A stretch of DNA of 64,000 nt from Scleroderma bovista (lineage: Eukaryota; Basidiomycota; Agaricomycetes; Boletales; Sclerodermataceae). This document shows positions 3,893 through 44,655 of this stretch, piece after piece (positions within the stretch are counted from its first letter, which is position 1; each line of letters begins with the position of its first letter). Position numbers and translations under genes: made by a program. Location of the stretch: assembly GCA_037178675.1 (NCBI GenBank), contig JAYMGJ010000380.1, forward strand, positions 124,001-188,000. Reading direction: 5' to 3'. Under the pieces are notes generated by a model. It worked only from the letters and a program-made list of their open reading frames with translations. It ran no database searches and had not been told where the DNA came from.

Positions 3893-4067
3893 TGTTAAAA
3901 GTAATGTGACCAGACAGGGAATTGAACCCTAGACCTCCTAGGTCTATACCAGGTGCTCTAACCACTGAGCTATATGGTCAAGGGTACATGGCCTACTTGG
4001 GGGGTTTTGACCCAAGTGCTAGCTTGAGAACCAGTGAAGTGAGGTGCTGAGATTACACCACTCAACA
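3893..4067 (-). repeat. TRIM solo LTR (175 bp)
   Basis: Plus-strand ends are TGTTAAAAGTAATG and CACTCAACA. It is flanked by a perfect GCTTC duplication (3888-3892, 4068-4072). The unoccupied LTR-G copies near 3112 and 8894 show the same site once, proving a mobile unit of exactly 175 bp. It contains a tRNA-like segment. Confidence 0.92.
3907..3979 (-). tRNA. tRNA-like element in TRIM LTR
   Basis: A 73-nt unit on the minus strand folds as a cloverleaf: 7-bp acceptor stem (GACCATA with TCTGGTC, one mismatch), D stem GCTC/GAGC, anticodon stem CCTGG/CTAGG, T stem TAGGG/CCCTG. A box TAGCTCAGTGG and B box GGTTCAATTCC match the Pol III consensus. The anticodon loop TATAGAC lacks the universal U33, so a decoding role is doubtful. 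A TTTT run lies 7 nt downstream. Confidence 0.65.
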
Positions 4068-14161: not shown

Positions 14162-14496
14162 TAATCTCCCAGCTCCCATCCAACAGACATACACCACCTC
14201 TAGTACCAGCACTCCAGCCTCCCAGCCCTCCTCAACTTCTAGTTGTTATATGTGTGGAGGTCCTCACTTTCTCAGCCAGTGCTTGGTTGTAGAAGACTAT
14301 ATTCATGCTTGTCAGATTGTGCACAGAGATGCACATCTAACATTCCCAGATGGTTCCTGTCTCAATCTGACACCATAGAACTGGTCTTTTCCGCACCACC
14401 ATTGACAAGTGTTTTGGCAGCTCACTCCTAGTCCAGTCATCTACCCCCTATTAGCATGCCGAGCACTTCTGAGTTCAGACATTGTTAGAAGTAATG

Positions 14497-14569
14497 TGAC
14501 CAGACAGGGAATTGAACCATAGACCTCCTAGGTCTATACCAGGTGCTCTAACCACTGAGCTATATGGTC
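14497..14569 (-). tRNA. tRNA-like element in TRIM LTR
   Basis: Same 73-nt unit as at 3907, with both box motifs present. One change lies beside the B box (GGTTCAATTCC retained, CTATGG in place of CTAGGG in the T stem). Confidence 0.6.
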
Positions 14570-14642
14570 AAGGGTACATGGCCTACTTGGGGGGTTTTGA
14601 CCCAAGTACTAGCTTGAAAACTAGTAAAGTGAGGTGCTGAGA

Positions 14643-14868
14643 TGTTGGTTTTGAGTGTTTGTGCACTCTTATTGTGCTTATGAACGCCGTTTGGGTGATT
14701 ACTTCAGCTCCTTCCTTTATTAGTTGATCACATGATTTGTGGCTTGTGTTTTCCTATGTTTCTCTTTGTTTGCTTTGTTTGTATAGTTGAAATTTTCGTG
14801 CCCAGAGTCTCTTCTCTTCAGTCTCTGACACTGGGCACTAGTGTCCTCCTTTGTGATTTATCTGAACA
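14643..14868 (+). repeat. LTR-F solo copy inside TRIM LTR
   Basis: 226 bp, TGTTGGTTTTGAG to ATCTGAACA, flanked by a perfect TGAGA duplication (14638-14642, 14869-14873). It post-dates the TRIM insertion. Confidence 0.92.
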
Positions 14869-16129: not shown

Positions 16130-16185
16130 TGGTAAAAGTAATGTGACCAACAAGGAATTAAACTCTAGACCTCCTAGGTCGATAT
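16130..16185 (-). repeat. TRIM LTR fragment
   Basis: The first 56 bp of the TRIM LTR in plus-strand reading (starting TGGTAAAAGTAATG) end abruptly where LTR-F begins. The rest, with most of the tRNA-like unit, is not on the far side of copia F2. Confidence 0.8.
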
Positions 16186-16449
16186 TGTTTAAATAATCCA
16201 CAAAAGAGCACTCTTGTGCCCAGTGTCAGAGACTGAAATTATGAGGAGAGCTACAGATTACAGACCTTGTGCCCAGTGTCAGAGACTGAAGAGAAAGGAC
16301 TCTGGGCACGAAAATTTCAACTACACAAACAAAGCAAACAAGAAAAACAGTGTAACACAAAAGCCACAAATCACCTGATCAACCTGGAAAGGACCTCAAG
16401 TAATCACTGCAAATCACACACAAGAGTGCACAAACACTCAATATCAACA
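16186..16449 (-). repeat. LTR-F, 3' LTR of copia F2
   Basis: 264 bp, plus-strand TGTTTAAATAATCC to AATATCAACA. The adjoining CTTCCCCCTGAT is the purine tract of F2 read on the opposite strand. Confidence 0.85.
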
Positions 16450-17838
16450 CTTCCCCCTGATTGTGCATCTCTGCAAATCACTAACTCCCCCTAGATCCAC
16501 CAAGTCCCAGCATCTGACAGAACTCCCTCACCTTGGGTGTAGCCAACAGTTTGGTGAGCAAATCAGCAGCCTGTGGAGTAGTAGAGACAAAGGAAGTTGT
16601 GATGGCCTGTTCCTGGACTGAATCTCGAAGCCAGTAGTAACACAGATCAAGCTGCTTCATCCTGCCATGGTGTTCTGGATTCTTGGCCACAGAAATCGCA
16701 GATTGGTTGTCAATGAGCAGAGAGGAGGCACCAGGAAGGGGAATACCAAGCTCATGCATCAGATTGTGCATCCATTTGATCTCCTTGCCTGCCTGGACAG
16801 CTGCCATGTACTCAGCTTCAGTAGTAGAGAGAGCAATGACGTTATGCAGCTTAGAAGACCAGGAAACTGCACCAGTGCCCATCTTGACCACATATCCACC
16901 AGTAGAGCGACCAGTATCCTTGCATCCACCATGATCTGCATCAGAGAACGTGATAAAGGTCTCAGGTTGCGAGGGATCAGGGGAGTAGGTGATAGAGTAT
17001 TCAAGGGTACCCTTAATATAACGCAGGAGGTGTTTGACAGCGAGCCAGTGGGTCCAGCCAGGATTGGAGTTGAATCTGGCCAATACTCCAACAGAATATG
17101 CGATATCTGGACGAGTAGTGGTAGCAAGGTACATCAGAGCACCAACAGCAGAGAGATAAGGAGTCTGACGCATAATATCGGCTTCCTGAGCATTCTGGGG
17201 GCTCTGAGTGCGAGAGAGACGAAGGCCAGGTTCCATGGGAGTGGAGATGGGCTTATAGTTAGCCATACCAAATCTGTCCAGGACATCAAGGCAATACTGC
17301 CTTTGGGAGAGTGAGATAGAGCACTTGGCATGATCCCTGTCGATTTTGATACCTAGAAGCTGAGTGGTAGGCCCCAGATCACAGATTTTGAAGTGCTGGC
17401 TCAGTTGGGTGATGAAAGACTTGATGGCAGATTCAGATTGCGAGGCTAGAGTCATATCATTGACAAAGACAGGGAGAATAATAGTTACACCATCCTTGGA
17501 GTAGATATAGATGCTGGCATCAGAGTAGGTCTGCCTGAAGTCAAGAGACTCGAGCACAGAGCGCATCTCCTTGTTCCAGCGAATTCCACCCTGTTTACTG
17601 CCATAGATAGCCTTCTGGAGCAGACACACCTTAGTGTTGAGATCTCCCTCCACAAATCATTCTGGTTGAGCCATATAGACCTCACAGTCCATTTCCCCAT
17701 TGAGGTAGGCATGCGGGACGTCAAGGGAGTGCAGATGGAGGTCCTGGAGTGCAGCAAGAGCGAGAATAACCCGGATGGACGAAAGGCGAACAGTAGGAGC
17801 GAAGACTTCAAGGTAATCGAATCCAGGACGCTGGTTGT

Positions 17839-18412
17839 TGTTAAAAGTAATGTGACCAGACAGGGAATTGAACCCTAGACCTCCTAGGTCTATACCAGGT
17901 GCTCTAACCACTGAGCTATATGGTCAAGGGTACATGGCCCCTTGATGGGGGGTTTACTCCCAAGTACTAGCTTGGGAACTAGTGAGGTGATCGGTCCCTG
18001 ACGACTATGTATCCATCTCAACAGCCTCCCCTAATCCAGCACATCACTATTAGTAAAAGTGCAGGTGTGGGAATCCATTGCCTAATCTGCTTCTGGTCCA
18101 TTCCCTTGATGGTAGGGATTACTAACCCATAGGGGTTCCCTTCCTTTTGAAAGGGCTTACTAGGACACTGTGGACTTATCAGGAACATCAGACTCCACTT
18201 TATGTCTCTCTCCGCTTCTCGGCTCATAACCTGTAAAGTAAAGTGACCAGATGCTGAGGGAATTGAACCCTAGACCTCATCTTGGTCTATACCAGGTGCT
18301 CTAACCACTGTCTCCTATGGTCTGGGTACATCCGGCTTACTTGGGGACCTCCATCTCCAAGGACTAGCTTGGGAACTAGTGAGGTGAGGTGCTGAGACTA
18401 CACCACTCAACA
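17839..18412 (-). mobile_element. TRIM, full-length but diverged
   Basis: Two LTRs (17839-18023 and 18232-18412) flank an interior with the GCCTCCCC purine tract and a CGGCTCATAACC primer site (both in plus-strand reading). A perfect GTTGT duplication (17834-17838, 18413-18417) surrounds it. Compared with the 536-bp copies it is 574 bp and differs by short block replacements, for example around 17990-18010 and 18255-18345. Confidence 0.88.
17853..17925 (-). tRNA. tRNA-like element in TRIM LTR
   Basis: The 73-nt unit in the left LTR is identical to the consensus, with intact A and B boxes. The equivalent unit in the right LTR (about 18246-18325) is altered in several places, so it is not listed separately. 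Confidence 0.6.
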
Positions 18413-21400
18413 GTTGTAGCCCTTGGCCACCAATCGAGCCTTGTAGCGGTCTACAGAGCCATCTGCATTGCGCTTTACCTTGAATACCCACTTTGAACCG
18501 ATGACCTTACTCCCAGCAGGTCTAGGAACAAGGGTCCAAGTACCATTTGACTGGTGAGCAGCCAGCTCCTCCAAAGCAGCCTGTCTCCACTTTTCCGCAT
18601 CAGGACGAGTCAGAGCCTCTGCAAATGTGAGTGGCTCATCAGGGAGAGATGCAGACATAGCCAATTCATCATCACTGTCCTCCATCTCATCTGGTTCATC
18701 GAGCTGCGCAGGGGAGAGCTTCCACCACTCCCTAGGCTTCTGTCTGTTGTGCATAGGCAGTCTGGCACCGATTCCAATGGGACTAGGAGGTCTGGGACGT
18801 GGTTCTGGGGATGGAGTGCACACAGGGGGTGCAGGGGCTTCATATGGAACAGCAGGAGGTTCTGGATTAGCAGGTAAATGTATAGGCTCCCCCCCATGAT
18901 CCAGTACCTCATTGCAATCGCTCTCAGAGTCCAGAGTTGCACCAGGGTTGTAGTATTTAACAGGGGGCAAAGGTGGGACAACAGCAGGAGCAGTAGGGGG
19001 AGGCTGGGATGGTAAGGGCAATCTTTTGGACATAGGGAAGTACACTTTCGTCGAAATCAGCCCTTTCAGAGATCAGAGATTGAGAGAACGCTTGGAGGTG
19101 GGATTATAGAACTTCCAGCCTTTGTAACCCTCAGGATAGCCTAGAAAGACGCATTTCTCCAATGTGGGACTCCAGAGGGCGCCTCTTGTCCTTCTGCACA
19201 TGCACATAGGCAGTACATCCCCAAACTCGAAGGTGGGAGACATCATGGCTTGCACCTCATGTCCTTCTGCACAGTTCATAGTACAGCCCCAAACTCGAAG
19301 GTGGGACACATCAGGCTTGCACCCATGCCACAGTTCATAGGGAGTAGCATCCTTGACAGCCTCAGTAGGACACCTGTTCCAAACATGGACTAGAGAAGCA
19401 AGGCAGTCGCCCCAGAAACCTTTGGCAAGGCCAGACTCGTCCAACATCGCAGTCATCCGCTTGGATAGAACCCTATTAGCATGCTCTGCAACTCCATTCT
19501 GCTGGGGTTGATTCCTGACAGTATGCTGGCGAAGAATGTCACATTGGGTGGTGAAATCAATGAAGGCATTGCTCATATACTCCCCTCCCTTGTCATCGTG
19601 CAGAATCTTGATTTTTCGCTTGCTCTGGTTCTCAGCAAAGGCCTTGAACATCTTGAAAGCCTCAAAAGCTTGGGACTTGACCTTGAGAGGCATAACAAAG
19701 TGAAATCTCGAGTAGTCATCGATGAAAGTGATCCAGTATCGATACCCAGACATGGAGAGGTGGCCTACATCGTGGACATCGCTATGGACAAGTTCCAGGG
19801 GTCTGGATGCGTGCCATGAAGAGGTAGGGAAGGGGTTGGCATGCATCTTACCAGTCAGGCAGGGTTCACAGATAGGATCAGGGGCAGTCTTCGAGTCTAT
19901 GGCCATCCCAGTGACCAGATTGTGATGCAGCAGGGCCTTCACATCGGCCAGGTGGTGGTGAGCTAGTCTCCTATGCCACAAGTTGAGATCTAGAGGAGTA
20001 GTGGTAGCTGCAGACGCAAATTCGACCAGAGGGGCAGTTTCTCCATCCAGAAAAGCGCAGTTGCTTGTCCCTATGTTTGCAACGAAGAGAACAGGGCCAG
20101 GGTGACGTCTGAAGGCCATCTGCGTCGCATCAATGCTTACAAGGAAGCCCTTACTTCGACACAAGTATAGCACAGAGAGTAAATTATTCCTGAGGTCAGG
20201 GACATGCAGGACGTTGGTAAACTCGACGGGACGCTGCTTCCTTCCTCCAATAACCGGTACAAACACCACAGACCCCACCCCAGCAGAATAGACCACTTTA
20301 TTGTCTGCCAACTTCACTGGAACACATTTGGAGGTATAGTTGCGCATCCAGTGGCGATGGGGGGTCATATGAGCAGTGGCCCCAGTGTCTGCATTCCAAT
20401 GGACGTCAGCATCGAGTTGGAGTGGATAGAGTGGGGAGGAGGGGTCAAAGGAACGAAGACTTGCATTTCCAGCGAACTCCATGGCCTGGGAAGCGGACTG
20501 GGAGCCAGAGGATGCATCTGCAGGGGTCTGAGAGGAGCTGGACGCGTCAGAGGCTTGATTTGCGGCGTTACCACCCTTCTTAGTGCGCTTGGACTTCTGG
20601 GATAAGTAGTTGGTCTTGGCCTTGACAAGATTCTGGCACTTGTGGACACAGTGGTTCGAGTACTCGCAGAAAGTGCAGGACACAGAAGGGGGACACTTGC
20701 AGGTGCTGCCAGAGGCGAACAGGACTGCCTCAGACCCAGTGGTAGCCTCAGGGCGACGCTTGCGCTGTAACTCCTCCGCTAGGAAAGCCTCCTTGAGCCT
20801 GTCTTTCTCCAAAGACTGGAAGAGAAGTAGAGAAGAAGCAAAGTGGGAGTAGTCATCGCCCAGGGATCGCACCATAGCCATACAAATAAGCTCATTATCG
20901 AGGTCCTTGATGGTATAAGGGGTGGAGGCGTCCTTGGGGCGGAGCTGCTGGATCTTGGACATAGAGTCCTCAATCCTGGCGATGAGAGAGGTCAGGGACT
21001 CGTCCTCCTTCTTCCTAATCGAGAAAAAGTCGTCCCAGGCATTGAAACGAGCTCCTGGACGCTGTTGGAGGTGGATAGACTCCAGGGTCGACCAGATCTT
21101 GGCAGGGTGGTCTTGGACAGCCTCTATATGCGTCCTCTGTTCAGCAGAGAGGGAGAGATACAGCTGACCTGCAGCCTTGTCCGCTCTAAGGTCCCATTTA
21201 GCCTGGAGGTCGGAGTGGGAGTCATCAGGGCGCTTCTCAGCACCACTAACAATGGTCCAGAGGCCCTTGGTGCGCAGGAAGGCCTTCATCTCCCCCTTCC
21301 AGGTGGAGTAGTTGGAAGAGGCGAGTTTTTCGAAGGAAGGAGTGGAAGAGCTGGTGGAATCGTCGGCCATGGGGATGGGAATGCGATGGGGGCATGAAGG

Positions 21401-21520
21401 AGGGCTGGGGAGCGAGTTTTGAGGCTGGGGCAGAGAGGCAAAGAGTGGAAATCGATGTAGTAGGCGAAAAAAGTTGCGCAGCAGCAGGAGGGTGGTCTAA
21501 AGCATAGTCCTAAAGTTCCT

Positions 21521-21540
21521 GGAGCGCAGGGCTCATAACC
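21521..21540 (-). promoter_or_regulatory. Primer-binding site of copia F2
   Basis: Read on the minus strand it starts GGTTATGAGCCCTGCGCT, complementary to the anticodon region of initiator tRNA-Met. Here it adjoins a TRIM LTR in place of LTR-F. Confidence 0.75.
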
Positions 21541-21899
21541 TGTTAAAAGTAATGTGACCAGACAGGGAATTGAACCCTAGACCTCCTAGGTCTATATCAG
21601 GTGCTCTAACCACTGAGCTATATGGTCAAGGGTACATGGCTTACTTGGGGGGGTTTAACCCAAGTACTAGCTTGAGAACTAGTGAGGTGAGGTGCTGAGA
21701 CTACACCATTCAACAGCCTCCCCTAATCCAGCACATCACTATTACAAAGTGCAGGCGTGTGAATCCATTGCCTAATCGGGTCCATTGCCTTGATGGTAGG
21801 TCTTACTAACCCCATGGGGGATGCCTTCCTTTAAAGGGCTTACTAGGACACTAGGACTTATCAGGAACATCACCACTTTAGCACACAGGGCTCATAACC
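21541..21899 (-). mobile_element. TRIM LTR plus interior spliced into copia F2
   Basis: A 175-bp TRIM LTR (21541-21715) is followed in plus-strand reading by the purine tract GCCTCCCCTAATCC and the 184-bp interior, ending at the primer site GGGCTCATAACC. The next base starts LTR-F. There is only one TRIM LTR and no flanking duplication, so this is a recombinant join, not a normal insertion. Confidence 0.88.
21555..21627 (-). tRNA. tRNA-like element in TRIM LTR
   Basis: Same 73-nt unit, with one change in the anticodon stem (plus strand TATATCAGG for TATACCAGG). Both boxes are intact. Confidence 0.6.
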
Positions 21900-22136
21900 T
21901 GTTCAAATAATCCACAAAAGAGCACTCTAGTGCCCAGTGTCAGAGACTAAATTGAGAGGATAGCTACAGGATACAGACCTAGTGCCCAGTGTCAGAGACT
22001 GAAGAGAAGAGACTGTGGGCACGAAAATTTCAACTATACAAACAAAGCAAACACAGAAAAACAATGTAACACAAAAGCCACAAATCACCTGATCAACCTG
22101 GAAAGGAAACAGCTGAAGTAATTGTTAAAAGTAATG

Positions 22137-22209
22137 TGACCAGACAGGGAATTGAACCCTAGACCTCCTAGGTCTATACCAGGTGCTCTAACCACTGAGC
22201 TATATGGTC
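22137..22209 (-). tRNA. tRNA-like element in TRIM LTR (3' LTR)
   Basis: Consensus 73-nt cloverleaf with A box TAGCTCAGTGG and B box GGTTCAATTCC, TTTT 7 nt downstream. Confidence 0.65.
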
Positions 22210-22497
22210 AAGGGTACATGGCTTACTTGGGGGGGTTTAACCCAAGTACTAGCTTGAGAACTAGTGAGGTGAGGTGCTGAGATTACACCACTCAACAGCC
22301 TCCCCTAATCCAGCACATCACTATTACAAAGTGCAGGCGTGGGAATCCATTGCCTAATCGGGTCCATTGCCTTGATGGTAGGGCTTACTAACCCCATGGG
22401 GGTTGCCTTCCTTTTTAAAGGGCTTACTAGGACACTGGGACTTATCAGGAACATCACCACTTTAGCACACAGGGCTCATAACCTGTTAAAAGTAATG

Positions 22498-22570
22498 TGA
22501 CCAGACAGGGAATTGAACCCTAGACCTCCTAGGTCTATACCAGGTGCTCTAACCACTGAGCTATATGGTC
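22498..22570 (-). tRNA. tRNA-like element in TRIM LTR (5' LTR)
   Basis: Identical to the unit at 22137-22209. Its terminator run lies just before the primer-binding site. Confidence 0.65.
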
Positions 22571-23225
22571 AAGGGTACATGGCTTACTTGGGGGGGTTTA
22601 ACCCAAGTACTAGCTTGAGAACTAGTGAGGTGAGGTGCTGAGATTACACCACTCAACAGTAATCACAGGAAATGCGCAACAACAACACAACAAGAGTGCA
22701 CAAACACTCAATATCAACAGAGGTAGACCTGTGATCTGCAGCCACTAGCCGTTTGATCTTTGCATAGCTGTGCCACTGCCCTGACCCGGCGAGCACGACA
22801 GGCGAACAAAGTCTTACGCTTAGTTTAGTGGAACACCTGTGGGGATCTAGTCCCAAAGTAGCCTTACTTCTATGTCACCCCTTACATTAGTCACCATACC
22901 ATACCAGTTTCCCCACCACCTCGTCGGAGCACAACAGGAGCGCTTGGCGATCATCTACAGCCCTCACCCTGACGCTGTCCCCGAACCACAGGAAAGGGAA
23001 TCAGCAATTGAAGAAGAGTTTCAGTTCACCAACGCAGTTGCCGCCTACAGTTGCCTTGTTAGCGACTTTGAATTGCAAGTCCTCCTTGGCTTCCACCGTT
23101 CCCTTCCTGTCCCACCCCTGCCAGACCTCCCACTCGTGCGCCGCTGCACATTCCGTTCCTCTCGTTTCCATCCGGTCCAAAAGCGACCAACCTCTTATTC
23201 CCGTCTCTGCCCCTACTAGTTTGTC

Positions 23226-28516: not shown

Positions 28517-28794
28517 TGTTGATATTGAGTGTTTGTGCACTCTTGTGGTGTTGTGTGGCGCATTTGCAGTGATTACTTGAGGTGTTTCCTATCCAGGTTG
28601 ATCAGGTGATTTGTGGCTTTTGTGTTACACTGTTTTTCCTTGTTTGCTTTGTTTGTGTAGTTGAAATTTTCGTGCCCAGAGTCCTTTCTCTTCAGTCTCT
28701 GACACTGGGCACAAGGTCTGTAATCTGTAGCTCTCCTCATAATTTAGTCTCTGACACTGGGCACAAGAGTGCTATTTTGTGGATTATTTGAACA
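28517..28794 (+). repeat. LTR-F, 5' LTR of copia F3
   Basis: 278 bp, TGTTGATATTGAG to GATTATTTGAACA. Contains a duplicated CTGACACTGGGCAC motif. Confidence 0.93.
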
Positions 28795-28814
28795 GGTTAT
28801 GAGCCCTGCGCTCC
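28795..28814 (+). promoter_or_regulatory. Half-tRNA primer-binding site of copia F3
   Basis: GGTTATGAGCCCTGCGCT follows the LTR with no gap. Its complement GCGCAGGGCTCATAACC is the anticodon stem-loop sequence of eukaryotic initiator tRNA-Met, so priming is by an internally cleaved tRNA as known for Drosophila copia and yeast Ty5. Confidence 0.8.
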
Positions 28815-28965
28815 AGGAACTTTAGGACTACGCTTTAGACCACCCTCCTGCTGCTGCGCAACTTTTTTCGCCTACTACATCGATTTCCACTCTTTGCCTC
28901 TCTGCCCCAGCCTCAAAACTCGCTCCCCAGCCCTCCTTTGCTGCCCCCATCGCATTCCCATCCCC

Positions 28966-31900
28966 ATGGCCGACGATTCCACCAGCTCTTCCACTCCTTC
29001 CTTCGAAAAACTCGCCTCTTCCAACTACTCCACCTGGAAGGGGGAGATGAAGGCCTTCCTGCGCACCAAGGGCCTCTGGACCATTGTTAGTGGTGCTGAG
29101 AAGCGCCCTGATGACTCCCACTCCGACCTCCAGGCTAAATGGGACCTTAGAGCGGACAAGGCTGCAGGTCAGCTGTATCTCTCCCTCTCTGCTGAACAGA
29201 GGACGCATATAGAGGCTGTCCAAGACCACCCTGCCAAGATCTGGTCGACCCTGGAGTCTATCCACCTCCAACAGCGTCCAGGAGCTCGTTTCAATGCCTG
29301 GGACGACTTTTTCTCGATTAGGAAGAAGGAGGACGAGTCCCTGACCTCTCTCATCGCCAGGATTGAGGACTCTATGTCCAAGATCCAGCAGCTCCGCCCC
29401 AAGGACGCCTCCACCCCTTATACCATCAAGGACCTCGATAATGAGCTTATTTGTATGGCTATGGTGCGATCCCTGGGCGATGACTACTCCCACTTTGCTT
29501 CTTCTCTACTTCTCTTCCAGTCTTTGGAGAAAGACAGGCTCAAGGAGGCTTTCCTAGCGGAGGAGTTACAGCGCAAGCGTCGCCCTGAGGCTACCACTGG
29601 GTCTGAGGCAGTCCTGTTCGCCTCTGGCAGCACCTGCAAGTGTCCCCCTTCTGTGTCCTGCACTTTCTGCGAGTACTCGAACCACTGTGTCCACAAGTGC
29701 CAGAATCTTGTCAAGGCCAAGACCAACTACTTATCCCAGAAGTCCAAGCGCACTAAGAAGGGTGGTAACGCCGCAAATCAAGCCTCTGACGCGTCCAGCT
29801 CCTCTCAGACCCCTGCAGATGCATCCTCTGGCTCCCAGTCCGCTTCCCAGGCCATGGAGTTCGCTGGAAATGCAAGTCTTCGTTCCTTTGACCCCTCCTC
29901 CCCACTCTATCCACTCCAACTCGATGCTGACGTCCATTGGAATGCAGACACTGGGGCCACTGCTCATATGACCCCCCATCGCCACTGGATGCGCAACTAT
30001 ACCTCCAAATGTGTTCCAGTGAAGTTGGCAGACAATAAAGTGGTCTATTCTGCTGGGGTGGGGTCTGTGGTGTTTGTACCGGTTATTGGAGGAAGGAAGC
30101 AGCGTCCCGTCGAGTTTACCAACGTCCTGCATGTCCCTGACCTCAGGAATAATTTACTCTCTGTGCTATACTTGTGTCGAAGTAAGGGCTTCCTTGTAAG
30201 CATTGATGCGACGCAGATGGCCTTCAGACGTCACCCTGGACCTGTTCTCTTCGTTGCAAACATAGGGACAAGCAACTGCGCTTTTCTGGATGGAGAAACC
30301 GCCCCTCTGGTCGAATTTGCGTCTGCAGCCACCACTACTCCTCTAGATCTTGACTTGTGGCATAGGAGACTAGCTCACCACCACCTGGCCGATGTGAAGA
30401 CCTTGCTGCATCACAATCTGGTCACTGGGATGGCCATAGACTCGAAGACTGCCCCAGATCCTATCTGTGAAACCTGCCTGGCTGGTAAGATGCATGCCAA
30501 TCCCTTCCCTAGCTCTTCATGGCGCGCCTCCAAACCTCTGGAACTCGTCCATAGCGATGTCCACGATGTAGGCCACCTTTCCATGTCTGGGTATCGATAC
30601 TGGATCACTTTCATCGACGACTACTCGAGATTTTGCTTTGTTATCCCTCTGAAGGCCAAGTCACAAGCTTTTGAGGCCTTTAAGACGTTCAAGGCCTTTG
30701 CTGAGAACCAGAGCGAGCGAAAGATCAAGATCCTGCGCGATGACAAGGGAGGGGAGTATATGAGCAACGCTTTCATCGATTTCACGACCCAATGTGGCAT
30801 TCTTCGCCAGCATACTGTCAGGAATCGACCCCAGCAGAATGGAGTTGCAGAGCGTGCTAATAGGGTTCTATCCGAGCGGATTACTGCGATGTTGGACGAG
30901 TCTGGCCTTGCCAAAGGTTTCTGGGGCGACTGTCTTGCCTCTTTAGTCCATGTCTGGAACAGGTGTCCTACTGAGGCCATCAAGAATGCTACTCCCTATG
31001 AACTGTGGCATGGGTGCAAGCCTGATGTCTCCCACCTTCGAGTTTGGGGATGTACTGCCTATGTGCATGTGCAGAAGGACAAGAGGCGCCCTCTGGAGTC
31101 CCACATGGAGAAATGCGTCTTTCTAGGCTATCCTGAGGGTTACAAAGGCTGGAAGTTCTATAATCCCACCTCCAAGCGTACTCTCATCTCTGAAAGGGCT
31201 GATTTCGACGAAAGGTACTTCCCTATGTCCAAAAGATCGCCCTTACCATCCCAGCCTCCCCCTACTGCTCCTGCTGTTGTCCCACCTTCGCCCCCAGTTG
31301 AATACTACAACCCTGGTGCGACTCTGGACTCTGAGAGCGAATGCAATGAGGTACTGGATCATGGGGGGGCGCCTATACCTTTACCTGCTAATCCAGAACC
31401 TCCTGCTGTTCCAGATGAAGCTCCTGCGCCTCCTGTGCGCACTCCATCCCCAGAACCACGTCCCAGACCTCCTAGTCCCGTCGGAATCGGTGCCAGACTG
31501 CCTATGCGCAACAGACAGAAACCCAGAGAGTGGTGGAAGCTCTCCCCTGCGCAGCTTGATGAACCTGATGAGATGGAGGACAGTGATGACGAGTTGGCTA
31601 TGTCTGCATCTCTCCCTGATGAGCCACTCACATTTGCAGAGGCTCTGACTCGCCCTGATGCGGAAAAGTGGAGACAAGCTGCTTTGGAGGAGCTGGCTGC
31701 TCACCAGTCAAATGGTACTTGGACCCTTGTTCCTAGGCCTGCTGGGAGTAAGGTGATCGGTTCAAAGTGGGTATTTAAGGTGAAGCGCAACGCAGATGGC
31801 TCTGTAGACCGCTACAAGGCTCGATTGGTGGCCAAGGGCTACAACCAGCGTCCTGGATTCGATTACCTTGAAGTCTTCGCTCCTACTGTTCGCCTTTCGT

Positions 31901-32926
31901 CCATCCGGGTTATTCTCGCGCTTGCTGCACTCCAGGACCTCCACCTGCACTCCCTTGACGTCTCTCATGCCTACCTCAATGGGGAAATGGACTGTGAGGT
32001 GTATATGGCGCAACCTGAAGGCTTTGTGGAGGGAGATCCAAAAGCAAAGGTGTGTCTGCTTCAGAAGGCTATCTATGGCAGCAAACAGGGCGGAAACCGC
32101 TGGAACAAGAAGATGCGCTCTGTGCTTGAGTCTCTTAACTTCAGGCAGACCTACTCCGATGCCAGCATCTACATCTACTCCAAGGATGGTGTAACTATCA
32201 TTCTCCCTGTCTTTGTCGATGATATGACTCTAGCCTCGAAATCTGAACCAGCCATCCAGTCTTTCATCGCCCAACTCAGCCAGCACTTCAAATCGTCCAG
32301 ATATCGCCTACACTGTCGGAGTATTGGCCAGATTCAACTCCAATCCTGGCTGGACCCACTGGCTCGCTGTCAAACACCTCCTGCGCTATATTAAGGGTAC
32401 CCTTGACTACTCTATCACCTATTCTCCTGATCCCTCGCAACCTGAGACCTTTATCACCTTCTCTGATGCAGACCATGGTGGATGCAAGGATACTGGCCGC
32501 TCTACTGGTGGATATGTGGTCAAGATGGGTACTGGTGCGGTTTCCTGGTCTTCTAAGCTGCAAAACGTCGTTGCTCTGTCTACTACTGAAGCTGAGTATA
32601 TGGCAGCTGTCCAAGCAGGCAAGGAAATCAAATGGATGCGCAATCTGATGCATGAGCTTGGTATTCCCCTTCCTGGCGCCTCCTCTCTGCTCATTGACAA
32701 CCAATCTGCGATTTCTGTGGCTAAGAACCCAGAACACCATGGCAGGATGAAGCAGCTGGACCTTTGCTACTACTGGCTTCGAGATGCGGTCCAGGAACAG
32801 GCTATCACACCTTCATTCGTCCCTACCACTCAACAGGCTGCTGATCTGCTCACCAAACCATTGACTACACCCAAGGTGAGGGAGTTTTGTCAGATGCTGG
32901 GACTTGGTGGATCTGGGGGGAGTTAG
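28966..32926 (+). pseudogene. Copia F3 gag-pol with an internal deletion in reverse transcriptase
   Basis: Start at MADDSTSSSTPSFEKLASSNY (28966), after a 151-bp leader. Rough residue positions: gag 1-210; CCHC knuckle CTFCEYSNHCVHKC near 231; protease DTGATAHM near 326; integrase HHCC 463-510 (LWHRRLAHHH, CETCLAGK) and DDE core with Asp in HSDVHDVG near 528, Asp in DDKGGEYMS near 591 and Glu in QQNGVAERANR near 626; reverse transcriptase from KVKRNADGSVDRYK near 935 to the active site FVDDM near 1082. At about 32293 a deletion of about 272 bp relative to copia F1 removes the end of reverse transcriptase and shifts the frame, closing at 32394. RNase H continues in another frame (32324-32926). 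Everything upstream of the deletion is open, so capsid, protease and integrase could still be made. Confidence 0.92.
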
Positions 32927-32945
32927 TGATTTGCAGAAATGCACA

Positions 32946-32957
32946 ATCAGGGGGAAG
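32946..32957 (+). promoter_or_regulatory. Polypurine tract of copia F3
   Basis: ATCAGGGGGAAG immediately upstream of the 3' LTR. Confidence 0.8.
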
Positions 32958-33235
32958 TGTTGATATTGAGTGTTTGTGCACTCTTGTGGTGTTGTGTGGC
33001 GCATTTGCAGTGATTACTTGAGGTGTTTCCTTTCCAGGTTGATCAGGTGATTTGTGGCTTTTGTGTTACACTGTTTTTCCTTGTTTGCTTTGTTTGTGTA
33101 GTTGAAATTTTCGTGCCCAGAGTCCTTTCTCTTCAGTCTCTGACACTGGGCACAAGGTCTGTAATCTGTAGCTCTCCTCATAATTTAGTCTCTGACACTG
33201 GGCACAAGAGTGCTATTTTGTGGATTATTTGAACA
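32958..33235 (+). repeat. LTR-F, 3' LTR of copia F3
   Basis: 278 bp, one substitution relative to the 5' LTR. Followed by CTTCA. Confidence 0.93.
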
Positions 33236-34700: not shown

Positions 34701-35811
34701 CTGGGGCTTGTGCTAATTTCACTATCGTAGCATATCAAATATGATGCTGATTTATTTGAGTACCATACTCCCATCGTTCGGGAGCTACCAACATGCCCCG
34801 AAATTCTGTGCGCAAGAATATCTTGAACCAACTCGACAACACAACCCTTACTATTGTAACTGCAAGGCTAGAAAATGTGTCGTGGAATGGAGGATAGTAG
34901 CCCGAGTTCAGCCTCCAGTTGGGGCGAGTCCAGTCTCTCCCAGACCCCCCTCTTCACTCTGTCGTCACCGATCTCACTGATCTCATCAGATCTTGAGTCC
35001 AGCTCCTCTGATGACTCTACGGTTGAACGAGATGCTCGATATGCCCGGCTCCTAAATGGAATCAGTGCGCTTAGAGACGAAATCGAGTATGCCCGCGTAC
35101 TTGAAAAACCAGATGTGCCGATGATGCGTGCACCCCAGCTATGCCTCCTTGAACACTTTGCGGATCATAGACCCCACTTATTTATCAAGCGCCTTCGTGT
35201 GTGGCCATCGATTTTTGATCGCATCCTCAATCAAATCAGTGACCACCCTATTTTTCACAGCCGCTCTGAAAACCGCCAGTTGCCTGTTGCCATTCAATTG
35301 GCGATTTTCCTCTTCCGTGCAGGGCATTATGGGAATGCGGTGTCGCCTGAGGATGTCGCCCAATGGGCTGGGGTGAGCGTTGGGTCGGTTGTCAATTGTA
35401 CCAATCGTGTCATGATTGCTGTTCTGGACGAACACGACCAATTTGTCAGAATTCCATCCGAGGACTCGGAGGATATGGAGAAAGCCTGGGTCTTTACTGA
35501 ATCACGCACCTGTCCAGCCTGGAAAAATGGCATTTTTGCCGCTGATGGTTCAAGTATCCCCCTGTTTGAAAAGCCTCATATGTTTGGAGAATCATATTAT
35601 GACAGAAAGTCAAGATACTCCCTCAACTGTCAGGTGGGTACTTAAACAAGCATATAAAGTAGTAGGACTTACATGTCATATAGCTTGTTATCATGCCACA
35701 TAATTTACTTGTTGTGGACTATGTGTTGAGTGGTGTAATCTCAGCACCTCACCTCACTAGTTCTCAAGCTAGTACTTGGGTTAAACCCCCCCAAGTAAGC
35801 CATGTACCCTT

Positions 35812-35884
35812 GACCATATAGCTCAGTGGTTAGAGCACCTGGTATAGACCTAGGAGGTCTAGGGTTCAATTCCCTGTCTGGTCA
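35812..35884 (+). tRNA. tRNA-like element in TRIM 5' LTR
   Basis: 73 nt, LTR positions 89-161. Stems: acceptor 7 bp with one mismatch, D stem 4 bp, anticodon stem 5 bp, T stem 5 bp. A box TAGCTCAGTGG and B box GGTTCAATTCC agree fully with the Pol III consensus. The anticodon loop TATAGAC has A at position 33, so the nominal anticodon UAG (Leu) is unlikely to be used, and the short variable loop does not fit Leu. TTTT at 35891-35894 would end transcription inside the LTR. Confidence 0.7.
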
Positions 35885-35898
35885 CATTACTTTTAACA

Positions 35899-35917
35899 GG
35901 TTATGAGCCCTGTGTGC
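35899..35917 (+). promoter_or_regulatory. Primer-binding site of the TRIM
   Basis: GGTTATGAGCCCTGTGTGC follows the LTR directly. Its first 14 bases equal the copia F site, complementary to the initiator tRNA-Met anticodon region. Confidence 0.8.
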
Positions 35918-36070
35918 TAAAGTGGTGATGTTCCTGATAAGTCCCAGTGTCCTAGTAAGCCCTTTAAAAAGGAAGGCAACCCCCATGGGGTTAGTAAGCC
36001 CTACCATCAAGGCAATGGACCCGATTAGGCAATGGATTCCCACGCCTGCACTTTGTAATAGTGATGTGCT

Positions 36071-36084
36071 GGATTAGGGGAGGC
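36071..36084 (+). promoter_or_regulatory. Polypurine tract of the TRIM
   Basis: GGATTAGGGGAGGC immediately before the 3' LTR. Confidence 0.75.
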
Positions 36085-36172
36085 TGTTGAGTGGTGTAAT
36101 CTCAGCACCTCACCTCACTAGTTCTCAAGCTAGTACTTGGGTTAAACCCCCCCAAGTAAGCCATGTACCCTT

Positions 36173-36245
36173 GACCATATAGCTCAGTGGTTAGAGCACC
36201 TGGTATAGACCTAGGAGGTCTAGGGTTCAATTCCCTGTCTGGTCA
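36173..36245 (+). tRNA. tRNA-like element in TRIM 3' LTR
   Basis: Identical to 35812-35884, including both box motifs and the TTTT run. Confidence 0.7.
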
Positions 36246-37265
36246 CATTACTTTTAACACTATGGGCTCGGACACCCAGGAAGCATTCATGATGCATGGG
36301 CATTTCGGGGCACCTGTATCGCATCAGATCCTGCAGAATTTATCCCACAGGGTCACTGGATGTGGGCAGACAGCACATATCCAACAGAGACTTGGTGCGC
36401 TGTCCCCTTCAAAAAGCCTAGGGGAGGGGGATTATCTCGAGATCAAAATGTGTATAACAAACATCTTTCCAAGGTACATACCTTACTATCCCACAGGGAT
36501 CGCATATTGATCGGATAAACAGATTCGCGTGCGTGTTGAACACGCATTTGCTGCCTTGAAAGGTCGATTCCAAAGTCTTTGTGAAGTGCGCATGAAGATT
36601 CGGACAGAAAAGGATACAAAGGTGGCAATATTCTGGGTCCTTTGCTGCATCATTTTGCACAATATGATTGTATGCTTTGAGGAAGAAATGGGGGAGAATG
36701 TCATGCCCTCGACTGACTGGGCAATTAATGAAGGAAGTGGCTTGCACGATGAAGACGTGGTGGAGGTTGCAGAGGCTGTAGGAACTCCTGGTCAGCAATT
36801 TCGCATGGGGCTGCTAGATAAACTGTTTCAGCATCTCGGACGGGAGCGTACCCATACATAAACACATTCCAGCCAACAGCGGATGTTGGGGGTTCTTGAG
36901 GTCTTTGATGGAGTAGATGTCACAGTAAGGGGGTCCCAAGCGAGTTCAGACCTTTGTTCATGAAATAAAATCCTATGCCTGACACGCATACACGTTGGTG
37001 TGAGATGGGCAACGCAAACAAGAACACAAGATACACAAGTACATACACGAATTTCCCACCAAGGAAGGATACTGGGCCCTATAACAGTGGTACAATGTCA
37101 GATGTGAGCAATGAAGTGGATGTGACGAGCTGGGAGATGGGGTGAGCAACAAGACAGGACAAGCAACAAGATGAGATGAAACAACTTGATCAAATGCACC
37201 CGGCACAAGATAAAATGAGATGAGAAACTAAGGGACACAGTAATGAAGAAGCGAGGGTCTTGAGT

Positions 37266-41070: not shown

Positions 41071-44000
41071 GTCGGCCACAAGTTCTGATGCGTGTCTGAG
41101 CTCGGTCGCGATCAACCAGGATGTTTCTTCATTGGTACCTTTGTAACCAGCCCATTTAACTAGGTAGAGGAGTGGGCATTGACGTCGACATTGGTCAAAC
41201 TTTGAATCGAGGATCTTGGTGATCTCGAATTCGGCTTCGCCGTCGACTTCAATGGGAGGTGGTGGAGGTTGAGACCGATTCGGTATTGTGTTCGGTGTCA
41301 ATGGTTCGAGCTGTGAGACGTGGAAGACAGGGTGGACAGCACGCATAGAGTCAGGGAGACAGATTGTGAATGATAGGGTGCCAACTTGGGCAACGATTGG
41401 GTAGGGGCCAAGATTCTTTGATGGTCGGGTAGACCTAAAGTACTTGGCTTTGACGAATACTTGATCACCGACTTTGAAATCGGGTGCAGGTGATCTTCTG
41501 GCGTCAGCGGGGCCTTGGTACCTTTTCTGGGCAGCAGCCATCTCTTCACATAGGTACTCATGCAATGACTCTAAGTCAACTGCATATTCCCTTGCCCAAG
41601 CTGATGAGAGATTGCACTCGGGATGCACAGCAAGGTTCAGGTGGTATCCTTTGTTTGCAAAGAACAGTGATACACCAGTCATAGTGCTAGGGGCATTGTT
41701 GTAGGCAAACTCAGCGAGAGGTAGTAGGTCCGACCAATTGTCCTGCTGGTAGTTGCAGTACATCCTAAGGTATTGTTCGAGGGTTTGATTAGCTTGCTCG
41801 GTCTGTCCATCACCTTCTGGGTGATAGCCCGAAGTGAAATGTAATTTCATATCTAAGGCCTTACTGAGTGATCAGAAGAAATGGGAGATGAACTCTGAGC
41901 CTTGGTCAGATGTTACATGTGCAGGGACGCCATGCTTAGCAAAGACATGGAGTAGGAAGAGCTGTGCGAGCTCGGGGGAAGTTATTGTGTTGTGAGTCAG
42001 GATGAATATGGCTTGCTTTGATAGTCAGTCTATGACTACCAGTATGGCTGTGAAGCCAGATGAGGATGGGAGTTGCTCGATGAAATCCATCGAGATGGAC
42101 TTCCATGGTCGGTCGGGGACCAGTAATTGCTTGAGCATCCCATAGGGTCAGTGACGTGGCGTCTTAGCTCGGGCGCAGGCCATGCAGGACTTAACGTAGT
42201 CCTTTATGTAGGTATGAATTCCTGGCCATGTGTATTCGTGACGGATGAGCTCTAGAGTGCAATTCTGACCAAAGTGTCCCAATAGGGGATGGTCATGCTT
42301 GTATCTGAGGACACGAAGACGTATGTCATCGGCCTTGGGGACGTACATGCAACCATCAAGACATTGGTAACCAGTCTCATTGGTCAACCATTGGGGATTC
42401 AATGTGTCCAAGAGGTGGGCTTTAGCAATGGGATCGGTCGGGAGATTAGCTAGGATATCGGCATGGAGATGCTCAACGTCCATGAGTACACTAGCTCTGA
42501 GTACTGGGGTGTGTAGGTATGTCACGCGAAGGGAATCGGTGAGCTGTTCAGCCGTGAACACTGGTCGGAGGTTCTGTGGATTGACTCGGGCGAAGCCCCT
42601 ATCCCCCTCTTTGGGGTAGACGTCCCAGCGTCTAGTCAAGGTGTCGGGCTTTGCACCAAGTTTACCAGGTTGGAAACGAATGATCAGGTTGAAAGATGAG
42701 AGATATTCTGACCATCGGGCTTGCTGATGGGTGAGAACCTTAGAGGTGGAGAAATACTCCAAGTTTTTGTGGTCAGTCACGACGTCAATCGGGAAGGCAG
42801 GGCCCTCCAGATAATGACACCAGGTTTTGAAGGCCTTGAAGATAGCGAGGAGCTCCTTGTCGTGGGTATCCTAATTTAGCTCAGGTGTGATCAGAGTGCA
42901 AGAGTAGAATGCAATCGGTTGGATCTCGTCATCCGAACCGGTGATGGACAAGATACCGGCGATCACGTAGTCTGACATGTTGGTCTTGACCGTCAGTTGG
43001 GCGCCTGGCTGGAAGTGGGTGAGGATGGGAGCTGTGGTGAAGGCCCTCTTGAGTTGGTTGAATGACCGTTGGCAGACGTCGGAGAAATCCCAAGGGGCAT
43101 CTTTCCATGTCAACCAAGTTAATGGAACCACTATATCAGAGTAATTGAAGATAAATTGACGGTAAAAGTTCGCGAAGCCGAGGAAGGACTGAATGTCCTT
43201 CACCTTGCAAGGTTCAGGCCAATCACAGATTGTCTTGACTTTGTCTTGCAACATCGTCAAACCATCGGGGGAGAGGAAGTACCCGAGGTACTCCACTGAG
43301 TCCGAATGGAACTCACACTTTTTGGGTTTGGCATAGAGCTTGTGCTTGTGGAGTCGCCGAAGCACTTCCCAAATGTGTTTGGTATGGTCCTCCATGTTGT
43401 CTGAGTAGACTAATATGTCGTCGAGGTAGACTACGATGCAGACATCGAGCATGTCCACGAAGACCGAGTTGACAAACTGCTGAAAGGCTGCAGGGGTGTT
43501 GGTGAGACCGAAGGGCATCACCTGCCACTCATATGAGCCATAGCGAGTCCTGAAAGCAGTTTTCCACTCATCACCTTCAGCAATGTGAACCAGGTGGTAA
43601 GCATGTTGAAGATCAATTTTAGTATAGACCTTTGCCCGACTCGGAGAGTCGAGTAGGTCGGAGATGAGGGTTAGAGGATACCAATCCTTCTTTGATATCT
43701 TATTGAGTCCTCGGTAGTTGACGCAAAGTCGTAGGAAGCCATCCTTCTTGACAAAGAGGACAGGGGCTGCATGGGAGGATGAGGTCGGACGGATGAAACC
43801 AAAGCAAAGGTTTTCGTCGATGAATGCCGGAAGGGTTTCGAGCTCGACGGGGGAGAGAGAGTAGAGTCTACCGGGCAGTAATGGCACTCCTTCTTCTAGT
43901 TCTATCTTGAGGTCGTATTCCCGATGAGGCACGAGTACCGATGCTTTCGCCTTGCTAAAGACGTCAGCAAAGTTGTGATATACCTCAGGGATGGAGGGGA

Positions 44001-44655
44001 GGTCAGGAGTAGTGTTAACTGATGCAGCACGAAAGCTACCGTCAGGCTTCAGCTGAATAGAGAACTGTTGAGAACCATCGAGCTGGCAGGCCTTTAGAAA
44101 GGCTGCAGCGTTGATGAGAGCAATAGGAGGTGCCCGAAGACCGGGAGCCTGAGGCGAGTCGGTCAGGGAAGGAGACGAGACTGACATAGCGTCAAGTCTC
44201 GGCGTGCTCGGTGAGTGCACTACTGGGTCAGGGAGTGAGCTCGGGGTTGGCACTTGCTGCATGGATGTTCTGAACTTGATACTGCTCAGTACCCAGTCAA
44301 TCGACGGATTGTATCGGGTGAGCCAGTTGTGTCCGAGAACAATCTTACAGTCAGAGTCCAATGGGGTGACATAAAATGTCATTGGGGTGACGTCGCCAGA
44401 GGGAAAACGGATAGGTAGATCAGTTGCTTTGGTAATTATGGTGGTGGTGGTACTGTCGAATAGACGGAGAACGATTGGGGATACCGAGTAGCGTGAAAGA
44501 GTGTTCATATTGGCAAATGATGGATCTACAAAATAATGGGTGGAACCCGAATCTACTAACATGGGGAAAGATTGTATATCGCGGTCACTGATAGTAACCT
44601 GAGGTCGGAGAGAGTTTGGATAGGAAAGAGTGGCTGCATTGAGTTGGGCCTCCAT
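41071..44655 (-). pseudogene. Gypsy A pol with integrase and chromodomain, decayed
   Basis: On the minus strand, 44655-42871 gives an aspartic protease (PMLVDSGSTHYFVDPSFA), reverse transcriptase (FVKKDGFLRLCVNYRGLNKI, VVYLDDILVYSDN) and the start of RNase H. 42780-42148 has the RNase H end (TDHKNLEYFSTSK) and integrase HHCC (HDHPLLGHFGQNC...CMACARAK). From 42147 to 40957 come the integrase core (TSDQGSEFISHFF near 41900, HPEGDGQTEQANQTLEQY) and a chromodomain-type tail (EFEITKILDSKFD, YLVKWAGYKG, TSWLIATELRHASELVAD). Stops at 42145 and 41870 fall where Arg is expected and look like CGA-to-TGA changes; one TAA lies near 42869. The frame runs out of pol straight into LTR-A at 41070, so the natural end and purine tract are lost. 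Confidence 0.88.

What the first reader, a model, noticed from the sequence alone, without database searches (positions are those of the whole stretch)
35724..36259. A TRIM retrotransposon whose LTR carries a tRNA-like Pol III unit
The 536-bp element has two identical 175-bp LTRs, a primer-binding site, a polypurine tract and a CTATG target duplication, so it is an LTR retrotransposon. It has no coding capacity. Each LTR holds a 73-nt cloverleaf with A box TAGCTCAGTGG and B box GGTTCAATTCC and a TTTT run 7 nt after it. Plant Cassandra elements carry a 5S rRNA Pol III promoter in their LTRs. A fungal counterpart with a tRNA promoter is, to my knowledge, not described. At least seven copies or fragments occur in this window (3893, 14483, 16130, 17839, 21541, 22123, 35724). 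The terminator sits inside the LTR, so Pol III would make a short LTR RNA of about 80 nt unless it reads through.
Basis: partly seen in the sequence, partly recalled or inferred. Interest (0 to 1): 0.92.

Follow-up and report, generated by a model that had tools for sequence, protein, structure and literature searches.

The report
Fungal mini-retrotransposon with tRNA-like terminal repeats
This is a real, recently active, gene-less mobile element of a mushroom-type fungus whose end repeats hold a tRNA-like sequence, a kind already published in 2024 as Helenus, and some of its copies are natural hybrids that point to the larger element that moves it.

Summary
35724-36259 is a 536-bp TRIM: two identical 175-bp LTRs, a PBS, a purine-rich tract and a CTATG duplication. 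Each LTR holds a tRNA-like cloverleaf (Rfam tRNA, 55.9 bits) with TTTT six bases after it. The genome holds at least 54 such LTR ends. The novelty claim fails: Kojima (2024, PMC10886601) described "Helenus", TRIMs with tRNA-derived LTRs, from fungi, animals and plants. The Helenus features testable here are met (one inconclusive), including 5-bp duplications and a PBS matching the anticodon arm of initiator tRNA-Met. New here: of 17 internal-region copies, 7 carry a Copia LTR in place of the TRIM 5' LTR, joined exactly at the shared PBS. Three of four intact simple hybrids have perfect 5-bp duplications, so each was integrated as a unit. All seven use LTRs of one Copia lineage, which made up only 3 of 26 other PBS sites sampled. 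The best reading is that TRIM and Copia RNA share particles, and Copia plus-strand strong-stop DNA transfers to TRIM minus-strand DNA. That would name the helper physically. Pol III transcription remains inferred. The LTR's T4 is shorter than the first T run of 13 of 15 host tRNA genes, which would fit read-through.

The parts
35719..35723 (.). 5' target-site duplication CTATG
35724..35898 (+). 5' LTR of the TRIM (LTRt, 175 bp, TGTTGA...TTAACA)
35812..35884 (+). tRNA-like cloverleaf in the 5' LTR (A box TAGCTCAGTGG, B box GGTTCAATTCC)
   Evidence: pairing counts; cloverleaf energy -23.2 against minimum -23.4 kcal/mol
35891..35894 (+). TTTT, candidate Pol III terminator, kept in 52 of the 54 LTR 3' ends found by a pattern that itself includes it (up to 3 mismatches)
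35899..35912 (+). PBS GGTTATGAGCCCTG, complementary to the anticodon arm of initiator tRNA-Met (half-tRNA priming)
   Evidence: assignment to iMet from Kojima 2024 and recall, host iMet gene not retrieved
35899..36084 (+). internal region (INTt, 186 bp, non-coding)
36074..36084 (+). purine-rich tract TTAGGGGAGGC before the 3' LTR
36085..36259 (+). 3' LTR, identical to the 5' LTR
36173..36245 (+). tRNA-like cloverleaf in the 3' LTR
36260..36264 (.). 3' target-site duplication CTATG
22123..22658 (-). second intact TRIM copy, 100% identical over 536 bp, inserted in a Copia LTR with duplication ATTAC
17839..18412 (-). older TRIM copy (LTRs 84-95%, internal 88% identical) inside a Copia internal region, duplication ACAAC
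3893..4067 (-). solo LTRt, duplication GAAGC
14483..14643 (-). LTRt lacking its first 14 bp
16130..16184 (-). LTRt fragment (positions 120-175)
21541..21715 (-). LTRt joined on one side to TRIM internal and on the other to a Copia PBS
21716..21899 (-). TRIM internal region joined to a Copia LTR at the PBS (hybrid junction)
21900..22122 (-). Copia LTR (larger part; its first 61 bp lie at 22659-22719) upstream of the hybrid junction
16450..21540 (-). Copia internal region (gag, integrase, RT remnants) downstream of the hybrid LTRt, interrupted by the older TRIM
16186..16449 (-). 3' Copia LTR of the compound array (no target-site duplication: 3 of 5 bases match)
28517..33235 (+). Copia element of the candidate helper lineage: LTRs 28517-28794 and 32958-33235 (99.6%), same PBS at 28795, ORF 28894-32394 with gag, integrase and most of RVT_2, duplication CTTCA

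Best explanation
The element is a Helenus-type TRIM of an agaricomycete fungus. Its LTR carries a tRNA-derived Pol III promoter unit. Its RNA is packaged together with RNA of one Copia lineage (here 'Copia-c', represented at 28517-33235). That Copia's reverse transcriptase copies it from a half initiator tRNA-Met primer, and its integrase inserts it with 5-bp duplications. In a sizeable share of events the plus-strand strong-stop DNA of Copia-c (its LTR plus PBS) anneals to the TRIM minus-strand DNA through the common PBS (intermolecular second-strand transfer). The result is a cDNA with a Copia 5' LTR, TRIM internal region and TRIM 3' LTR that is integrated as a unit. Shown: structure, duplications, hybrid junctions at the PBS, matching duplications around three hybrids, and that all seven hybrid junctions carry an LTR of the Copia-c lineage. 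Inferred: integration of these hybrids as units (from the duplications), co-packaging, the transfer step, Pol III transcription, and read-through of the weak T4 of the 5' LTR to the T4 of the 3' LTR as the source of template RNA.
For: Anatomy. (18 of 18 candidates scored): 17 usable internal copies plus one 36-bp piece set aside; upstream LTR is TRIM in 10 and Copia-c in 7. All 7 junctions read ...AACA|GGTTATGAGCCCTG followed by TRIM sequence. Perfect 5-bp duplications around 3 of 4 intact simple hybrids (GAGGC, GCTGA, GGATA) and around 7 of 8 pure TRIM units tested, one of them a three-LTR tandem. A hybrid should not be copied as such, because reverse transcription makes both LTRs alike, so each should be its own event; the 7 donor LTRs are 76-96% identical to each other. 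Their best matches among 8 held LTRs that stand before Copia-c-type PBS sites are 92-99%, over the whole LTR or, for C748, C373:48888, C373:72031 and the window copy, over its first 200-205 bases. Donor choice: among the first 30 PBS sites listed, 26 are not TRIM; 3 of these are Copia-c and 15 belong to one other family, yet 7 of 7 hybrids use Copia-c. Copia-c RT loci lie on TRIM-bearing contigs in 9 of 13 cases, other Copia RT loci in 2 of 137. An intermolecular second-strand transfer is expected to break exactly at the PBS, between U5 and the internal region (PMC5651808 passages).
Against: No RNA, particle or Pol III data. Outside PBS, LTR ends and duplication length, TRIM and Copia-c share no sequence that would explain selective packaging. 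The PBS occurs 462 times in several repeat families, so it cannot itself confer choice. The two compound arrays (window 16186-22719; C373:71858-77104) and hybrid C182 lack duplications and may be post-integration recombinants or assembly joins. Of the three reciprocal LTRt-Copia junctions found (up to 3 mismatches) two lie in those compounds and the far end of the third was not mapped. The C748 donor LTR matches a held Copia-c LTR well (95%) only over 200 of 279 bases; over its full length the best is 83%. The Copia-c grouping was made after seeing the data, on the top 150 of 530 candidates. The 30 PBS sites are the first by contig order, not a random sample. In retroviruses the second transfer is generally intramolecular. 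Lack of TTTT elsewhere in the element is not significant (789 of 2000 shuffles contain one). The A box is not better conserved than the LTR upstream. In the pairing test two of five measures do not exceed the shuffles.
Confidence: 0.72

Rival explanations
1. The hybrids arose by recombination between integrated copies or between extrachromosomal cDNAs at the 18-bp AACA+PBS identity, not by strand transfer during reverse transcription.
For: Compound three-LTR arrays without duplications exist, which Sabot & Schulman 2007 (PMC1950507 passages) treat as the sign of recombination between insertions. TRIM and Copia-c copies sit on the same contigs.
Against: Three hybrids carry perfect 5-bp duplications directly abutting the Copia LTR on one side and the TRIM LTR on the other, which exchange between integrated copies would not be expected to leave. 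Recombination at the PBS should use the commonest donor families, but 7 of 7 hybrids use Copia-c. Extrachromosomal recombination before integration is not excluded.
Confidence: 0.2
2. The tRNA-like unit is a passenger (an old tRNA-derived SINE trapped in an LTR) and the element is transcribed by Pol II from its U3 like an ordinary TRIM; Pol III plays no part.
For: No expression data; the A box is not specially conserved (9 changed of 341 cells, 0.026, against 0.022 upstream); anticodon UAG with a short variable arm and A33 fits no functional tRNA (isotype rules recalled).
Against: The unit is the only alignable part shared by two otherwise dissimilar LTR families in this genome (84-85% over about 70 nt). 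It keeps a cloverleaf in 92.5% of cells (slid versions at most 44.2%), with two pairs changed on both sides, though two of the five covariation measures do not exceed the shuffles. It varies less than the LTR upstream (0.012 against 0.022, p 0.0085). TTTT is kept in 52 of 54 ends found (pattern-biased). The same association occurs in many Helenus families.
Confidence: 0.25
3. The tRNA-like units are ordinary or pseudo tRNA genes and the repeats around them are an array of unrelated solo sequences.
For: ARAGORN and Rfam call them tRNAs.
Against: LTR pair, PBS, purine tract, 5-bp duplications and at least 54 copies.
Confidence: 0.01

Closest known systems
Helenus (Kojima 2024, PMC10886601), TRIMs with tRNA-derived sequence in the LTR ('TRIMp3')
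   Different: This family's sequence could not be compared with the published consensus sequences (supplement and Repbase not available here). Here the cloverleaf pairs well, whereas the paper's introduction says predicted structures do not support tRNA function. The paper's main text has 0 occurrences of 'chimer' or 'hybrid'.
Cassandra (plant TRIM with 5S rRNA promoter in the LTR)
   Same: Pol III promoter unit with T-run inside the LTR of a non-coding LTR element
   Different: 5S rRNA instead of tRNA; plant hosts; transcript ends known in Cassandra (as cited by Kojima), not here; no helper known for Cassandra
SMARTs / FRetro129 with Copia FRetro64
   Same: Miniature element whose LTRs differ from those of its putative Copia helper while PBS and purine tract agree (PMC3281118 passages)
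   Different: There the internal region is 96% identical to the helper; here no internal similarity was found, and the link is given by hybrids instead
Template-switching complex insertions in Triticeae (Sabot & Schulman 2007, PMC1950507)
   Same: Chimeric LTR elements integrated as a unit with duplications (passages)
   Different: Those have three LTRs with matching outer LTRs and a proposed switch between two RNAs at R; here a two-LTR element with unlike LTRs and a break at the PBS (second transfer) between unrelated elements
Intermolecular second-strand transfer in HIV-1 (PMC5651808)
   Same: Predicted break between U5 and the internal region at the PBS (abstract and passages)
   Different: Inferred there between two related viral genomes; here between a TRIM and a Copia retrotransposon

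Membership tests
TRIM | Under 1000 bp, two LTRs, no protein genes, PBS and purine tract at the ends of the internal region | tested here: met
   536 bp
Helenus | tRNA-derived sequence with A and B boxes inside the LTR | tested here: met
Helenus | Fungal families make 5-bp target-site duplications | tested here: met
   Perfect in 7 of 8 pure TRIM units tested and in 11 of 16 full-length LTRs entered as solo copies (1 more 4/5; one of the 4 misses is the C539 copy joined to a Copia PBS); these 16 are the window's solo copy and those among the best-scoring loci, not all solo LTRs of the genome
Helenus | Fungal families mostly use the anticodon loop of a tRNA, chiefly iMet, as primer | tested here: met
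   PBS GGTTATGAGCCCTG contains the complement of a CAU anticodon arm; the host iMet gene itself was not retrieved
Helenus | tRNA isotype by sequence and by anticodon disagree (not a working tRNA) in many families | tested here: inconclusive
   ARAGORN calls Leu(UAG) on a short-variable-arm unit; tRNAscan-SE isotype models not available
Helenus | Sequence similarity to a published Helenus consensus | not testable with these tools
   Consensus sequences are in the supplement/Repbase; supplement look-ups capped at 0
Helenus / TRIMp3 | Transcription by RNA polymerase III | not testable with these tools
   No RNA or occupancy data; Kojima also leaves it unproved
Mobilised by Copia | Shared PBS and duplication length with a resident Copia; physical link | tested here: met
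   mobilisation itself is inferred
Cassandra | 5S rRNA-derived promoter in the LTR | tested here: not met
   Rfam finds only tRNA in the window at gathering scores
megB1 (basidiomycete repeat) | Dimeric Alu-like element, mostly in rDNA IGS1 | tested here: not met
   Our element is an LTR element with PBS and duplications; megB1 known only from passages in PMC10627285, sequences not compared

The most novel reading that the evidence does not exclude
The genome preserves repeated, independent products of intermolecular plus-strand strong-stop transfer between a Pol III-type TRIM and one Copia lineage. These would be direct fossil evidence that a TRIMp3 RNA is co-packaged with its helper, that the shared primer site is the gate for strand exchange, and that helper identity can be read from heterologous 5' LTRs. 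This could become a general way to find the unknown helpers of Cassandra, Helenus and other LTR parasites.
Probability: 0.6. Interest if true: 0.62.

Novelty: new member of a known kind. Interest (0 to 1): 0.45.

Why it matters
The element itself fills in a published group (Helenus) in another agaricomycete. The added value is the hybrids. How a TRIM is tied to its helper is stated as unknown in the 2024 paper, and there the Copia link of fungal Helenus rests on PBS similarity, duplication length and one internal-region match across species. Copies with a helper LTR at one end and the TRIM LTR at the other, inserted with a duplication, point to the helper within one genome and can be looked for in any assembly. 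The weak T4 in the LTR against T5-T7 of most host tRNA genes examined gives a concrete, measurable idea of how one promoter could yield both a short RNA and a full-length template.

Tried and rejected
Considered that the unit is a working tRNA gene: unlikely, because of A33, UAG with a short variable arm, and 54 or more copies fixed inside an LTR (tRNA rules recalled). Considered that the PBS pairs with the element's own tRNA-like unit: longest perfect match 5 nt, in line with what Kojima reports for Helenus. Considered megB1 (recalled as a basidiomycete element with Pol III features): described as a dimeric Alu-like element of rDNA spacers, not this. Lack of TTTT between the two tRNA-like units as evidence for Pol III passage: not significant. 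Similarity between the TRIM internal region and Copia beyond the PBS: none seen in the blastn runs. Host identity: Copia pol and COX3 searches point to Agaricomycetes (named hits include Sparassis, Agrocybe, Leucogyrophana, Hericium), but the nearest COX3 matches (93% and 86%) are unnamed; species not identified. Two RPB2-type loci were fetched but not used for a search, because exons are split. Relatives of the genome were not available, so conservation across species was not tested; two LTR families of this one genome were used instead. The second family has no PBS within 3 mismatches of its LTR end (0), so only solo LTRs of it are known here.

Papers: PMC10886601 read as abstract, introduction, methods, results, discussion, figure legends and tables plus passages; supplement not seen. 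PMC1950507 and PMC5651808: abstract and passages. PMC5668417, PMC11899658, PMC3187697, PMC3281118, PMC5689174, PMC10627285 and PMC3918722: passages and search listing. PMC2828711 (soybean LTR swapping): not held, title seen in a reference list only. Yeast terminator rules, and what is said of Ty5 or Cassandra beyond the passages cited: recalled. That TRIM/Copia heterologous-LTR hybrids were not found in print rests on searches of an open-access library only; several of these listed papers on recombinant LTR elements that I did not open.
Full report
What is there. The element at 35724-36259 has two identical 175-bp LTRs, perfect CTATG duplications, a PBS directly after the 5' LTR, and a purine-rich tract before the 3' LTR. 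A tRNA-like unit of 73 nt sits at LTR positions 89-161, found by ARAGORN and by Rfam with 55.9 bits. In the same genome the RF00005 matches that are not these repeats and look like ordinary tRNA genes score about 49 to 68 bits (63 of 1605 candidates were scored). The unit folds almost as well as a cloverleaf (-23.2 kcal/mol) as in its free minimum (-23.4). A second intact copy, 100% identical over 536 bp, lies at 22123-22658, so the family was active recently. The genome, 51.8 Mb in 850 contigs, has at least 54 LTR 3' ends (up to 3 mismatches) and 17 usable internal regions plus a 36-bp piece (18 of 18 candidates scored).

A second family. Of 20 RF00005 places fetched, four turned out to be LTRs of a different family, 203 or 238 bp, TGTTGGA...ATTTAACA. 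Three of these four have perfect 5-bp duplications (CTCTT, GTCCA, TGGGG), one (L108) does not. Two more copies, L111 and L112, were fetched but not tested for duplications. At least 12 places carry it (40 of 64 candidates scored). Its tRNA-like unit is 84-85% identical to that of the finding over about 70 nt; no other similarity between the LTRs was reported. On an alignment of 20 units, chosen as one per distinct variant (14 of the first family, 6 of the second; 19 distinct rows), 92.5% of cells pair in the cloverleaf, and sliding the structure drops pairing to 18-44%. Against 500 shuffles, percentage paired, cells changed on both sides (10) and covariation score are reached by none, but the number of pairs with a change on both sides (2; 428 of 500 shuffles as high) and of further pair types (15; 404 of 500) are not above the shuffles. 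Much of the signal is the difference between two families, so it counts as few events. No second-family LTR end is followed by the PBS within 3 mismatches.

It is a published kind. Kojima 2024 (PMC10886601; sections read) names TRIMs with tRNA-derived LTR sequences Helenus. They occur in fungi (Pucciniales, and Agaricus, Coprinopsis and Amylostereum), animals and a lycophyte. [quoted passage not shown] The present element meets these points as far as they can be tested.

The primer site. GGTTATGAGCCCTG occurs 462 times in the genome, its reversed control 0 times. In the 30 loci fetched from the first listed places, 35 rows were printed; all are preceded by CA or TA, as LTR ends are, 25 of them by AACA. 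Of the 30 primary sites, 4 are TRIM internals, 15 one abundant family, 4 another, 3 the Copia-c lineage, and 4 others. That the abundant families are Copia follows from RVT_2 matches 3.8-6.5 kb downstream on the same strand at C1, C20 and C28 (first family) and C2 and C10 (second), comparing the lists by eye; other sites were not checked. Priming at this site is thus common in this genome and by itself does not choose a helper.

The hybrids. Annotating each of the 17 internal regions with the segments LTRt, INTt, LTRc and INTc gives a TRIM LTR upstream in 10 (two of them in the C717 tandem) and a Copia-c LTR upstream in 7 (C748, C373:48888, C373:72031, C27:22074, C182, C498 and, in this window, 21716-21899). 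All seven junctions are exact at the PBS. Of the four intact simple hybrids (Copia LTR, TRIM internal, TRIM LTR), three have perfect 5-bp duplications (GAGGC, GCTGA, GGATA) and one (C182) does not (2 of 5 bases). The C498 copy is cut at its 3' side and was not tested, nor was the TRIM copy C27:2553, whose 3' LTR is cut. Two compound arrays, one of them in this window, lack duplications (0 of 2) and are better read as later recombination, the criterion used by Sabot & Schulman (passages). Three reciprocal LTRt-Copia junctions were found with up to 3 mismatches; two lie in the compounds, and the far end of the third, C539, was not mapped.

Why the simple hybrids matter. Normal reverse transcription makes both LTRs alike, so an element with unlike LTRs inside one duplication should be the first-generation product of an exchange made before integration, and each its own event. 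The seven donor LTRs are 76-96% identical to each other. Among 8 held LTRs standing before Copia-c-type PBS sites their best matches are 92-99%, over the whole LTR for C27, C182 and C498, and over the first 200-205 bases for C748, the two C373 copies and the window copy; for C748 the best full-length match is 83%. In the scheme for HIV-1, an intermolecular second-strand transfer breaks between U5 and the internal region at the PBS (passages of PMC5651808); this is the observed anatomy. The donor is Copia-c in 7 of 7, although Copia-c makes up only 3 of 26 non-TRIM sites in the sample. That is hard to square with random recombination at a PBS shared by all, though the sample is the first 30 places by contig order, not random. 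Copia-c RT loci also share contigs with TRIM LTRs (9 of 13 against 2 of 137; grouping by match position made after the fact, top 150 of 530 candidates, the window's own Copia not among them). Among duplication-flanked units with TRIM internals tested, 3 of 10 are hybrids. A misassembly would hardly create matching duplications on both sides of three loci, but read-level support could not be checked.

Transcription. Nothing here shows Pol III use. For it: the tRNA-like unit is the one module seen in common between two LTR families, it varies less than the LTR upstream (27 of 2263 against 59 of 2704 cells, p 0.0085; 31 LTR copies after collapsing by flank), and TTTT is kept in 52 of 54 ends (the pattern includes it, so this leans towards retention). 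Against: the A box shows no extra conservation (9 of 341 cells). Of the 20 places, five are repeats of the two families and 15 look like host tRNA genes; their first T-run of at least four is T5-T7 in 13 and T4 in 2, the latter two with T7 or T8 close behind (several genes are paralogues; a sixteenth gene printed was not counted). The LTR has T4 only. If terminator strength follows length as in yeast (recalled), Pol III would often pass the 5' LTR and stop in the 3' LTR. That would give an RNA of roughly 450 nt whose terminal repeat is the tRNA-like unit and whose U5 is four bases. Cassandra RNA is reported to start and end in its LTR 5S units (as cited). That no TTTT lies elsewhere in the element is not significant.

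Host. Copia and COX3 searches place the genome among Agaricomycetes; no named close relative was found.

Verdict. The element is a new family of a known kind, as far as could be compared. The hybrids are a useful new handle on how such elements are mobilised.

Noticed in passing
L106:491-728, L107 and L109 (C199, C473, C554) and at least 9 further places: Second family of tRNA-like LTRs (203 or 238 bp, TGTTGGA...ATTTAACA, 5-bp duplications in 3 of 4 tested), known here only as solo LTRs; ARAGORN calls its unit tRNA-Tyr(AUA).
   Followed up: partly
C717:6491-7384 (L003:1501-2394): Tandem TRIM with three LTRs and two internal regions inside one GACCA duplication.
   Followed up: partly
G000 genome-wide: 462 exact half-iMet-type primer sites: several repeat families of this genome, at least some with Copia RT downstream, share this PBS.
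   Followed up: partly
window 26648-27925, 42871-44655 and 60178-63331: Gypsy-type retrotransposon pieces (integrase with Chromo, RVT_1, RNase H); the window holds many nested retrotransposon pieces.
   Followed up: no
C387 (L116): Apparent mitochondrial contig (COX3, many tRNAs); its COX3 is only about 64% identical to the nearest named fungal COX3 but 93% to an unnamed protein.
   Followed up: no
C539:31399-31573 and downstream (L082:100-5250): Nearly intact TRIM LTR (98.9%) standing directly before a mutated PBS (GGTTATAAACCCTG) of a Copia diverged to about 68-85%; the two parts look different in age; far end not mapped.
   Followed up: partly
window 14483-14643, 16130-16184: Truncated TRIM LTRs next to Copia LTR pieces, signs of repeated nesting and recombination.
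   Followed up: no
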